Assembly (NCBI GenBank): GCA_026014705.1
Contig: JAOZHU010000043.1
Span: forward strand, 1 to 49,013
Origin: Candidatus Bathyarchaeota archaeon
Lineage (GTDB): Archaea > Thermoproteota > Bathyarchaeia > Bathyarchaeales > Bathycorpusculaceae
DNA length: 49,013 nt
Direction of reading: 5' to 3'
Shown here: one piece after another, positions 642 to 36,433 of the stretch
Numbering within the stretch: position 1 is the stretch's first letter
Layout: every line of letters starts with the position of its first letter
Notes under the pieces: generated by a model
What the model was told of the DNA's origin: nothing
The model's input: only the letters and a program-made list of their open reading frames with translations
The model's database searches: none
Translations under genes and position numbers: made by a program

Positions 642-676
642 AGCGCGTGGAGCAGTCTATAGCCCCCCTTTAAATA
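642..676 (+). repeat. 35-base repeated element, copy 1
   Basis: AGCGCGTGGA, five variable bases, then CTATAGCC followed by C-rich and T/A-rich sequence. It aligns without gaps to 7465-7499 at 28 of 35 positions, with the same spacing between the two conserved blocks. The last bases (CCCTTTAAATA) could be a BRE/TATA pair that drives the RNA candidate beginning near 707. The function is unknown. Confidence 0.6.
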
Positions 677-706
677 GTTTATATAGCGTTGGAAGCGCTG
701 TGCGGG

Positions 707-761
707 ATAGACCCTCTATAGGTTTCTGCAATGAACCACTAATAGGCTCCAAATATGCTGG
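707..761 (+). ncRNA. candidate structured RNA or repeat, copy 1
   Basis: A short hairpin ATAGA-CCC-TCTAT (707-719) overlaps CTATAGGTTTCTGCA (716-730), then a 7-base variable linker, then ACTAATAGGC.CCAAATATG..GG (738-761). The same arrangement recurs at 36377-36433, with 36 of 46 identical positions in an ungapped alignment. In the second copy the hairpin reads ATAGG-CCCT-CCTAT, so one A-U pair has become G-C, a compensatory change. A TATA-like stretch (TTTATATAG, 678-686) lies about 25 bases upstream, as expected for an archaeal promoter. Transcription is inferred. Confidence 0.45.
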
Positions 762-1170
762 TGTGGTTGATTGTGTGTGAGTTGGTGGTGACGCTTTCTC
801 TTGTTTCTGCATTGTTTTGATATTTGACGGCAGATATGTTAGTGTATGCCGTTGCAGAATTGCCCATGGGTTTGGAGTTTAAGCGGTTCTCCTTTTATGA
901 CAGATTTTCCTGTGCGGTCGTCGTTTGATTGAAAAATCTAGTTTAACCAGGATACGTTTATCGGCGTTGTGAGTTGCATGGCGTTTTACATCATATCTTT
1001 GTTTTGTTATTTTTTTGATTCGTATCTAAAGGAAAGGCTTGCACAAGAGGAGACTCTCGATTCGTGATCTGTCTTAGCGGATTTCTCTGAACAATTGAGG
1101 ATTTCTATTTGCCATTGTTGGAGAATTGAGGATTTGTTTTTGTTTCAATGCGACATAGAAACACGTAAAT

Positions 1171-1212: not shown

Positions 1213-1968
1213 ATGGACTATGGAGAATTTGTTGAACGAATCAAGCAAATAAAAGAAAGGGGCTTTGTTGAGTCATGTCGAAGCGGGGACACGGGCATAG
1301 GCAAAACTTTGGAGGATTTGTTAGGCATCGCGGAGAATAATATTGCTGGCCCCGACTTTGGCGTTTATGAGTTAAAATCAGGCAGGAAAGATTCTCTCTC
1401 AATGCTTACGTTATTTACAAAGGCACCTATGCCGAAAGGCGCAAACAAGAGCCTTTTGGAAGCATTTGGATATAAGCAGCGCGTCAAGAAGAACCAAAAA
1501 CAGCGGAATGTGACAGATTACATAGATGCTGAAATCCGTGAACAAGAATGCAATATTAGGGAAAAAGAACTTCATGTTACAGTTGATTCCAAATCTGTCA
1601 ATAGTGTTGGTCTAAGGCTAGAAATTAAGAATAAGCGAATTTACATCAGCAACACCAAGAATGTGTTGGCTTATTATGATGAAGCTGTTTTGAGGGAAGC
1701 TTTTGAGAAGAAATACAAGAAATTGATACTCGTTTTAGCCTCAAGCAAGAAAGAGCAGGGCAAAGAGTGGTTCTGGTTTAACGAGGCATATTTGCTTGAA
1801 GGGTTCAGTTTTGACAGATTCGCTGAACTCGTTAAAGAAGGAACTATCAAGCTAGACCTGAGAATTGGGCACTACCCAGATGGCAGACCACATGACCACG
1901 GAACGGGTTTTCGAGTACTACCGAAAGATAGACCTAAGTGCTTCGAGAAGATTGTCAGACTAATCTAG
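1213..1968 (+). CDS. MvaI/BcnI-family type II restriction endonuclease
   Basis: A 251-residue protein with the characteristic N-terminal block of the MvaI/BcnI family: SGDTGIGKTLEDLLGIAENN at residues 24-43, then a PD-(D/E)xK nuclease core GPDFGVYELKSGR with D48, E53 and K55 as likely metal-binding and catalytic residues. Known members cut CC(W/S)GG-type sites as monomers; the site here cannot be read from sequence. The gene runs tail to tail with a DNA methyltransferase, the two stop codons overlapping by 3 bases (1965-1968), which completes an R-M cassette. The start is the ATG at 1213, just after a good TATA box. The length is normal for the family (about 240-250) and no frame damage is visible. 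Confidence 0.88.
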   Translation: MDYGEFVERIKQIKERGFVESCRSGDTGIGKTLEDLLGIAENNIAGPDFGVYELKSGRKDSLSMLTLFTKAPMPKGANKSLLEAFGYKQRVKKNQKQRNVTDYIDAEIREQECNIREKELHVTVDSKSVNSVGLRLEIKNKRIYISNTKNVLAYYDEAVLREAFEKKYKKLILVLASSKKEQGKEWFWFNEAYLLEGFSFDRFAELVKEGTIKLDLRIGHYPDGRPHDHGTGFRVLPKDRPKCFEKIVRLI

Positions 1969-3212
1969 GGTTTCCAGAAATCTAGAATAAACTCCATTGT
2001 TGCACCCAAGGATATGAAGTTGCTTGGCCAGCCGAATATGCCTACTCTGTTCACGAGATTGCGTTTATCCCAGATGAAAGTGTTTCTAAACTCGAAACCA
2101 GCTTTCTGCAAGGCGCCGAGAATGTATACGTGCGTTGGAATTCGTTTGTTGTTTTCCCAAACATCATTAACATTTATTATGCAATGAGCCCGCTTTCTCA
2201 TCAAAGGCAAAATTCCCGAGTATATCTCTTGGATCGCTTTGCTATAGCCTTCATGATTCATAGTGCCGAGGTCAGAGGGGTTATTGGAGTATTGCTGCAC
2301 TTTCAGGTAGTGACTGTTTTTTCTGAGGTCGCCTCTTATGCTTTTGTTTAGCCGTCTATGTGCTAACATATTAGCGTAAGGCGGCGAAGTAATGCACAAT
2401 GAGACTGTGTTTTCCTCTAAATACGCAGGTATATTATGTGCGTCGTCTAAAATTGCAATCTGCTGAGTCCCATCATCTAATATCTTCTTTTGCCCAAGCC
2501 TTTTTCTGCTAATCTCGATGTACTCTTCCTTCAAATCAAAGCCCACGGCGTTTCTGCCTAAGTCTTGCGCCGCTAAGAGAGTACTGCCAATTCCAACAAA
2601 GGGATCTAAAACAAGCTCGCCTCTGTGAGTCAACGTTTTGATAAAATGGGCAGGCAATGCTATGGGGAAAACTGCTGGATGCACATCCTTATCACGTATA
2701 TCTCTGCCCTCATAATAAAATTCTTTAATTTCATCGTTGGTTATCGGAAATTGCTGAATTGCAACTTGGCTTTTTACCCATTCCTTGGCTGTAATGCAGC
2801 TGATATGACGCGAGTCGCAATCGCAGGTTTTTACGAACCCTATTTTCAGCTTTTTCCCACTGTCTGCAGCAGGGGGGACTTCAGCGGCGAGAGGAACAAA
2901 GGCATTTGGAGATTTTGTTTCTGGTTCAAAATTATAATTTTTGCGCTCGTTTGCTAGGATTTGGAAGCCGCCATTATTTTTAGAAATAATTATCTGCGTA
3001 TTTACGGTAAATCTGTTCTTCAGATAATCCGACCAGAGCCTCCCGAATTTATCCACTTTGGCAGCCACGCCATTCAGCTTTGTCTCAAACGGAACTGCGC
3101 TATCACCGATTAGCTCCGCTCGATGCTGAACAGGAATATGAATAAACCCCAAGCTTACTTCCATCTTCTTAAGGGTCTTTACGACCATAGCCACCATTAC
3201 TTCTATTTGCAT
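1965..3212 (-). CDS. site-specific DNA amino-methyltransferase (m4C or m6A) of the R-M pair
   Basis: A 415-residue protein. The AdoMet-binding motif LDPFVGIGST is at residues 202-211, followed by the catalytic TSPPY motif at 275-279. TSPPY is typical of exocyclic amino-methyltransferases, and in BcnI/MvaI systems usually of N4-cytosine enzymes. The order (motif X/I before IV) fits the alpha/gamma arrangement rather than beta. The N-terminal ~150 residues have no motif I recognise and may include target recognition. ATG at 3212 is preceded by GAGGA, and a TATA-like TTAATTAAAA lies near 3253-3262. It faces the nuclease gene tail to tail, so the two have separate promoters. Its role is to protect host DNA at the same site as the nuclease. 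Confidence 0.88.
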   Translation of the reverse strand: MQIEVMVAMVVKTLKKMEVSLGFIHIPVQHRAELIGDSAVPFETKLNGVAAKVDKFGRLWSDYLKNRFTVNTQIIISKNNGGFQILANERKNYNFEPETKSPNAFVPLAAEVPPAADSGKKLKIGFVKTCDCDSRHISCITAKEWVKSQVAIQQFPITNDEIKEFYYEGRDIRDKDVHPAVFPIALPAHFIKTLTHRGELVLDPFVGIGSTLLAAQDLGRNAVGFDLKEEYIEISRKRLGQKKILDDGTQQIAILDDAHNIPAYLEENTVSLCITSPPYANMLAHRRLNKSIRGDLRKNSHYLKVQQYSNNPSDLGTMNHEGYSKAIQEIYSGILPLMRKRAHCIINVNDVWENNKRIPTHVYILGALQKAGFEFRNTFIWDKRNLVNRVGIFGWPSNFISLGATMEFILDFWKP

Positions 3213-20472: not shown

Positions 20473-20582
20473 GCGGTTGTAGTCTAGCCTGGTTTAGGAC
20501 ATCAAAGTGTTACTAACAATTAGTGACACTGTGTAAGCCTGCCACGTTGACGACCCGGGTTCAAATCCCGGCAACCGCACCA
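20473..20582 (+). tRNA. tRNA-Gly (anticodon GCC), intron-containing, CCA encoded
   Basis: Acceptor GCGGTTG/CAACCGC, D stem GTCT/GGAC, T arm CCGGG-TTCAAAT-CCCGG, discriminator A, then CCA (20580-20582). The anticodon loop CTGCCAC (20539-20545) gives GCC. The 5' half of the anticodon stem TCAA (20502-20505) is separated from its fifth base C (20538) by 32 bases; removing these restores the stem TCAAC/GTTGA and a 75-base tRNA. This places the intron between positions 30 and 31 rather than at the canonical 37/38. Confidence 0.93.
20506..20537 (+). other. tRNA intron at non-canonical position 30/31
   Basis: The 32 bases contain a hairpin: AGTGT and ACACT arms, a U-G wobble, ACTA/TAGT and a 5-base loop (20506-20530). 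It would be cut by the archaeal splicing endonuclease; no endonuclease gene is in the window. Confidence 0.85.
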
Positions 20583-33244: not shown

Positions 33245-36366
<3,122 letters not shown>

Positions 36367-36376
36367 AAAACGCGAT

Positions 36377-36433
36377 TATAGGCCCTCCTATAGGTTTCTG
36401 CATAAATTGACTACTAGGCGCCAAATATGTCGG
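36377..36433 (+). ncRNA. candidate structured RNA or repeat, copy 2, just after 23S
   Basis: Hairpin ATAGG-CCCT-CCTAT (36378-36391), CTATAGGTTTCTGCA at 36388-36402, 7-base variable linker, ACTACTAGGC.CCAAATATG..GG at 36410-36433. It starts about 10 bases after the inferred 3' end of 23S, so it is probably in the rRNA precursor. See copy 1 at 707-761. Confidence 0.45.

What the first reader, a model, noticed from the sequence alone, without database searches (positions are those of the whole stretch)
707..761. Candidate structured RNA duplicated next to the R-M cassette and next to 23S
Two copies (707-761 and 36377-36433) align without gaps at 36 of 46 positions: CTATAGGTTTCTGCA, a seven-base variable linker, and ACTA.TAGGC.CCAAATATG..GG. 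Each starts with a short hairpin (ATAGA-CCC-TCTAT versus ATAGG-CCCT-CCTAT) that shows a compensatory base-pair change. One copy is 10 bases after 23S, the other has an upstream TATA box. Conserved blocks with a length-fixed variable linker fit an RNA or a protein-binding site. I know of no described archaeal RNA with this pattern.
Basis: seen in the sequence. Interest (0 to 1): 0.68.

Follow-up and report, generated by a model that had tools for sequence, protein, structure and literature searches.

The report
Genome-wide intergenic DNA repeat in Bathyarchaeia
The two look-alike stretches are two of about thirty copies of a short DNA element scattered between genes in this uncultured archaeon and in many of its relatives; it does not behave like a structured RNA but like a protein-binding DNA repeat that keeps its place and direction beside the same genes in different genera.

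Summary
In detail: two ungapped copies match at 36 of 46 positions, and the pattern occurs in none of 100 shuffles. They belong to a dispersed family with about 30 copies in this genome. Forty-five to 66 sites were counted in two near-complete relatives, and a second "dialect" occurs in another family of the same order. A sample of 398 genomes across the phylum gave matches only in this order. The constant part is CCCYCTATAGGTTTCTGCA-N8-CTAWTAGGCKCCAAATATG, preceded by interchangeable modules and sometimes tandem.

The RNA reading is not supported. There is no consensus fold, no long-range covariation, fold energies no better than shuffles on either strand, no Rfam match, and a TATA box in only about half of the own copies and not in several other genomes.

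Copies lie between genes with no orientation rule. Across genera they sit at the same end of the same gene in the same direction in 36 of 49 independent gene families (25% expected), although flanks have diverged. Sequences are nevertheless homogenised within genomes, and presence is patchy even inside a genus. Spacing is more even than random in three of seven genomes.

Best reading: an order-specific, BOX/REP-like interspersed DNA element whose core is a protein-binding site evolving in concert. A chromosome-organising role is open.

The parts
657..706 (+). Upstream module A of copy 1: CTATAGCCCCCC + two TATA-like stretches (669-676, 678-685) + inverted repeat AGCGT-TGGAA-GCGCT (685-699)
   Evidence: Same module precedes 14 of 30 own copies and many copies in genome G024; not general in other genomes
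707..719 (+). Inverted repeat ATAGA-CCC-TCTAT overlapping the start of the core of copy 1
   Evidence: Sequence; pairing capacity kept in 69% of copies vs 16% with shuffled arm
712..761 (+). Copy 1, conserved core: CCCTCTATAGGTTTCTGCA-N8-CTAATAGGCTCCAAATATGCTGG
   Evidence: 63.6 bits, best-scoring copy of this genome
731..738 (+). 8-base variable linker of copy 1 (ATGAACCA)
   Evidence: Mean information 0.70 bits per base in own copies against 1.28 and 1.51 in the blocks beside it
739..756 (+). Imperfect DNA dyad CTAATAGG-CT-CCAAATAT (right block of copy 1)
   Evidence: Sequence; perfect palindromic variants TATTAGTATACTAATA and CTATTAGGCTCCTAATAG occur in relatives
803..840 (+). Decayed tandem copy behind copy 1
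   Evidence: R1 match 13.4 bits, E 0.0025 over the window; tandem copies are common in the family
36384..36433 (+). Copy 2, conserved core, in the spacer behind the 23S rRNA gene; no module A
   Evidence: 51.9 bits
36378..36391 (+). Inverted repeat ATAGG-CCCT-CCTAT at the start of copy 2
   Evidence: Sequence; for the family

Best explanation
The finding is two copies of an order-specific family of short interspersed, intergenic DNA elements (BOX/REP-like) in Bathyarchaeia. A ~50-bp core carries two sequence blocks with dyad symmetry separated by a fixed 8-bp spacer, preceded by interchangeable modules. Shown: high copy number, intergenic position, no orientation rule towards neighbouring genes, place and direction kept between genera, homogenisation inside genomes, tandem and mosaic forms, absence of an RNA fold. 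Inferred: the core is bound as double-stranded DNA by a lineage-specific protein. Copies are refreshed at old sites by recombination or by insertion beside existing copies (tandem arrays), which would make old places carry each genome's own dialect. When the protein is lost the whole family decays, which would explain patchy presence inside one genus.
For: Dispersed family: 33 own copies; 45 sites in G164 and 66 in G148 after merging tandems; 53 of 257 genomes of the class with dialect 1 and 41 of 257 with the dialect-2 model. All 80 listed rows of the (truncated) genome-contig scan are Bathyarchaeota, and a sample of 398 genomes of the phylum gave matches only in the same family and order. 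Intergenic, orientation-neutral: ++40, --43, -+37, +-33. Conserved place: 36 of 49 gene families agree in gene end and element direction, p = 1.5e-12, with most flanks aligning no better than random (first pass). Concerted: cores at shared places are no more alike than random pairs of the same genomes. G148 copies are 90-97% identical over up to ~107 bp while the closest congener's genes are about 79% identical. One place is shared by G148, G132 and G154, each with its own dialect, and is empty in six congeners examined. Fixed 8-bp linker, low information in the linker and high in the blocks. No RNA fold.
Against: No binding protein or recombinase was identified. Y1/RAYT transposases are not associated. 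No transposase-like gene was identified among recurrent neighbours, though these were not annotated systematically. Terminal inverted repeats and target-site duplications were not seen but not formally tested. Conserved places could also mean selection for a host function rather than old insertions. A C-to-T-only drift in the module A hairpin of own copies (read by eye) hints at RNA-level pairing in that module.
Confidence: 0.6

Rival explanations
1. Host-functional chromosome sites: the element is the recognition site of a chromosome-organising, segregation or division-timing protein (working like archaeal SegB sites or Bacillus Noc sites), so that copies are selected to stay in place and be spread over the chromosome.
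For: Places and direction kept between genera while flanks diverge. Spacing more even than random in G164 (CV 0.65, P 0.0014), G148 (CV 0.66, P 0.0003) and G032 (CV 0.54, P 0.0023); Fisher over seven genomes 2.8e-6. Numbers (30-70 sites) are like those of SegB (32-49, PMC12284271) and Noc (about 70, PMC4331003). Dyads and fixed linker; whole-genome dialects.
Against: No even spacing in G160 (P 0.53), G142 (P 0.73) or G103 (P 0.26), borderline in G161 (P 0.053). Total absence in close congeners is odd for an important function. Near-identity over ~107 bp in G148 is more than a binding site needs. In G103 12 of 38 copies lie between convergent genes against 15% of background gaps, as expected for tolerated insertions.
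Confidence: 0.25
2. A family of small RNA genes with a constant module, transcribed from the TATA boxes upstream.
For: TATA-like stretches at -60 to -40 in many G000 and G024 copies. Pairing capacity at the 5' end of the core. Nearly all variation in the module A hairpin of own copies keeps G-U pairs on the sense strand (read by eye).
Against: No TATA enrichment in G032, G148, G132 or G017. No consensus structure, no covariation in the core, fold z-scores about zero on both strands, no Rfam match. The module A hairpin would lie upstream of a start site placed about 25 bases after either TATA box, so outside the RNA.
Confidence: 0.08
3. A purely selfish miniature mobile element moved by an encoded transposase, without function for the host.
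For: Near-identical copies in unrelated flanks (G032: many copies with the same 46 bases; G148). Patchy presence inside a genus. Tandem and micro-duplicated forms. Copies at contig ends in G058 and G104.
Against: Places and direction conserved between genera and cores intact there, which neutral dead copies would not be. No Y1 transposase in most copy-rich genomes. No recurrent neighbour gene recognised as a partner.
Confidence: 0.3

Closest known systems
BOX elements of Streptococcus pneumoniae (boxA-boxBn-boxC; PMC3049150)
   Same: Short, modular, interspersed, intergenic; variable and tandem modules; many insertions shared between strains; no proven mover
   Different: BOX is conserved among strains of a species and predicted to fold strongly as RNA; here the core does not fold, the family spans genera of an archaeal order with genome-wide dialects, and place plus direction are kept between genera
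REP / REPIN sequences with RAYT transposases (PMC3116915)
   Same: Extragenic, palindromic, tens of copies, homogenised in each genome
   Different: REPINs are inverted pairs of ~16-mers tied to a RAYT; here the unit is a directional ~50-bp core and RAYT (PF01797) is missing from most copy-rich genomes
SegB binding sites of Sulfolobales (TCTAGASTCTAGA, STAGASTCTAKAG; PMC12284271)
   Same: Tens of dyad-symmetric sites scattered over an archaeal chromosome; the 5' part ATAGA-CCC-TCTATAG shares the half-sites TAGA/TCTA
Noc binding sites of Bacillus subtilis (PMC4331003)
   Same: About 70 palindromic sites distributed over the chromosome
   Different: Bacterial, shorter, no tandem modular form; only the working principle is comparable

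Membership tests
Structured non-coding RNA family | Conserved secondary structure with covariation | tested here: not met
   RNAalifold 0 pairs on 43 copies; MI only between neighbouring columns
Structured non-coding RNA family | Fold more stable than shuffled sequence | tested here: not met
   Mean z between -0.61 and +0.78 for the core in seven genomes, both strands; z -0.37 to 1.49 for single copies
Structured non-coding RNA family | Own promoter | tested here: inconclusive
   TATA-like enrichment in G000 and G024 only
Structured non-coding RNA family | Transcript | not testable with these tools
   No RNA-seq data available
Known Rfam family | Covariance-model match | tested here: not met
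   No match at 600-900 up to E 5; in the window only LSU rRNA and tRNAs
REP/REPIN | Companion Y1 (RAYT) transposase in the genome | tested here: not met
   None in G000, G012, G122, G132, G133, G142 although copy-rich; 28 of 257 genomes of the class have one, without regard to the element
BOX-like modular interspersed repeat | Intergenic, multi-copy, built of interchangeable and tandem modules | tested here: met
MITE | Terminal inverted repeats and target-site duplication | tested here: inconclusive
   None seen by eye at the ends in G032 or G000 listings; no formal test
Polar chromosome motif (KOPS/Chi type) | Orientation skew along replichores | tested here: not met
   25 orientation runs in G164 against 22.9 +- 3.3 expected
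SegB sites | Dyad AGA-S-TCT with one central base | tested here: not met
   Core has AGA-CCC(CC)-TCT in part of the copies, ACCTA-CCCCC-TATAGG in others; motif from PMC12284271
SegB sites | Bound by a SegB homologue | not testable with these tools
   No binding data

The most novel reading that the evidence does not exclude
The elements are the recognition sites of an undescribed chromosome-organising or segregation system of Bathyarchaeia: tens of sites of ~50 bp, kept in place and direction between genera, roughly evenly spaced in some genomes, with site 'dialects' that co-evolve with their binding protein and are lost as a set when it is lost.
Probability: 0.25. Interest if true: 0.8.

Novelty: new variant of a known kind. 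Interest (0 to 1): 0.55.

Why it matters
Short interspersed repeats are well known in bacteria and usually read as mobile debris. Here an archaeal family combines features seldom seen together: a core kept in place and direction between genera, homogenised inside each genome, absent as a set from close congeners, and in some genomes more evenly spaced than chance. That makes it a marker of concerted evolution of dispersed sites and a handle on an unknown DNA-binding protein of a lineage that is almost uncultured. If the protein organises the chromosome, it would open chromosome organisation in Bathyarchaeia to direct test.

Tried and rejected
Structured RNA: rejected on fold, covariation and Rfam. 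Part of the rRNA operon: rejected; the 23S 3' flank is conserved in relatives without the element; only G012 has a decayed module A-like element there. Cis-regulatory leader or terminator: rejected, no orientation preference. RAYT/REPIN: not associated. Viral element: 0 matches in IMG/VR. Polar motif: no orientation runs. A gene that travels with the element: neighbour ORFs clustered; clusters looked like shared gene neighbourhoods rather than one partner family, but they were not annotated. Even spacing: strong in three genomes, not in three others, so kept as a tendency only. Two literature searches for Bathyarchaeota repeats or ncRNA and for Bathyarchaeota MITEs found nothing, and one for Bathyarchaeia small RNA found one unrelated paper. 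A counting call failed on a wrong string length and was not repeated.

Full report
OBSERVATION. A TATA-like region and a short inverted repeat precede copy 1 as described. Copy 2 is not 10 bases after 23S: the Rfam LSU match ends at 36270, and a conserved stretch beyond it (GCCTATGCATGG) is found behind 23S in relatives that lack the element. A decayed tandem copy follows copy 1 at 803-840.

A DISPERSED FAMILY. The pattern with up to three mismatches finds 13 places in this genome, and 50, 37, 23 and 13 in four other genera of the family, with none for the reversed pattern. Aligning 223 distinct copies gives the core CCCYCTATAGGTTTCTGCA-WNGAAYCN-CTAWTAGGCKCCAAATATG. A sequence-only model of 43 diverse cores finds 33 copies in the own genome at E <= 0.01 and matches in 53 of 257 genomes of the class. 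In a sample of 398 genomes of the phylum, matches occur only in the same family and order. The viral collection has none.

ANATOMY. Copies are built of modules. In 14 of 30 own copies the core follows module A (CTATAGCCCCCTTTTAAATAGTTTATATAGCGYTGAAAGCGCTGTGCGGGATAGACCC), as in many G024 copies. In others it follows module C (TTTTCAACATGCTATTGGC-N-GCCAATAGCGACCTACC), and in G032 only GGGATAGACC. Tandem copies have periods of about 61 to 103 bp. The right block is an imperfect dyad, CTATTAGG-NN-CCAAATAG, which becomes a perfect palindrome in some relatives (CTATTAGGCTCCTAATAG; TATTAGTATACTAATA). The linker is variable but always 8 bases. A second dialect, TTTTCAACA-N8-YTATTAGTCTTCAAATATG, is frequent in another family of the order and has 38 sites in 1.2 Mb of genome G103, with the same 8-base linker.

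NOT A STRUCTURED RNA. RNAalifold predicts no pair on the core alignment. Mutual information links only neighbouring columns. Single copies fold no better than shuffles, and over seven genomes mean z-scores of the core range from -0.61 to +0.78 on either strand. Rfam gives nothing. TATA-like stretches are enriched at a fixed distance only in G000 and G024. The short 5' inverted repeat is better kept than with a shuffled left arm (69% against 16% with five or more pairs), but three different left arms pair with different right segments, and the sequences are related by descent, so this shows an inverted repeat, not an RNA helix.

PLACE AND DIRECTION ARE KEPT. Copies lie between genes without orientation preference. 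Comparing genomes, 75 pairs of loci share an ortholog-like nearest gene, and 57 agree both in the gene end and in the direction of the element (25% expected). Using one pair per gene family, 36 of 49 agree (p = 1.5e-12), while about 80% of the 90-bp flanks align no better than random flanks. So many copies predate the split of these genera, yet their cores are intact. At the same time the cores at shared places are no more alike than random pairs from the same two genomes, and inside G148 copies are 90-97% identical over up to ~107 bp although the closest congener's genes are about 79% identical. One place beside the gene of L273 carries the element in G148, G132 and G154, each in its own dialect, and is empty in six congeners examined. 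This is concerted evolution of old sites. Presence is also patchy: 12 of 32 congeners of G148 have the element and the rest none.

SPACING. In G164 (one contig, 45 sites), G148 (66 sites) and G032 the gaps are more even than random (P 0.0014, 0.0003, 0.0023), with no orientation runs in G164. Three further genomes give P 0.053, 0.53 and 0.73 and G103 0.26. Fisher's combination is 2.8e-6, but the effect is not general and the first three genomes were examined first; treat it as a lead.

MECHANISM. I read the core as a double-stranded DNA site for a lineage-specific protein (inferred from dyads, fixed linker, low information in the linker, lack of RNA fold). Old copies are refreshed from other copies by recombination or by insertion beside existing copies (inferred from tandem arrays and genome dialects). 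Y1/RAYT transposases are not the mover, and no partner gene was recognised among neighbours, which were clustered but not annotated. Whether the system serves the host (chromosome organisation, like SegB or Noc sites) or only itself is open: kept places and even spacing in some genomes speak for the first; patchy presence, near-identical long copies and an excess between convergent genes in G103 (12 of 38 against 15% of background gaps) speak for the second.

COMPARISON. Closest in anatomy are pneumococcal BOX elements (PMC3049150); REPINs (PMC3116915) differ by their RAYT. SegB sites (PMC12284271) and Noc sites (PMC4331003) are comparable as scattered dyad sites, but membership is not claimed. 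No description of this repeat was found in the paper library.

Noticed in passing
Downstream of 14 of 263 copies, e.g. L042, L048, L172, L185: A second palindrome, GTCAAG-N-CTTGAC, lies within 200 bp downstream of 5% of the copies and never upstream (0.4% expected), often 6-8 or 39-42 bp after the core; it may be another module or another repeat that targets the element.
   Followed up: partly
L289 (G144), L304 (G131), L291 (G132): Module A-like stretches (TATAGCCCC/TATACCCCC followed by TATA-like sequence) occur beside an orthologous gene also in genomes where the core was not detected, so module A may be an element of its own.
   Followed up: no
G058 and G104 contig ends (L257, L265, L259): Divergent relatives of the right block sit within 10-50 bases of contig ends, as expected for a high-copy repeat that breaks assemblies.
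   Followed up: no
window 1213-3212: MvaI/BcnI-type restriction endonuclease (PF15515) and converging DNA methylase (PF01555): an ordinary type II R-M pair next to copy 1.
   Followed up: partly
window 20473-20579: Rfam tRNA match spanning 107 bases that ARAGORN does not report: possibly a tRNA with an intron.
   Followed up: no
L233 (G012, behind 23S): A decayed module A-like element with TTTTCTGCA lies behind 23S in the same direction as copy 2 in this genome.
   Followed up: no
own copies, module A hairpin (e.g. window 685-699): Variants of AGCGC-N5-GCGCT among own long copies are nearly all C-to-T and keep G-U pairs on the sense strand, none G-to-A; few independent events (read by eye).
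   Followed up: partly
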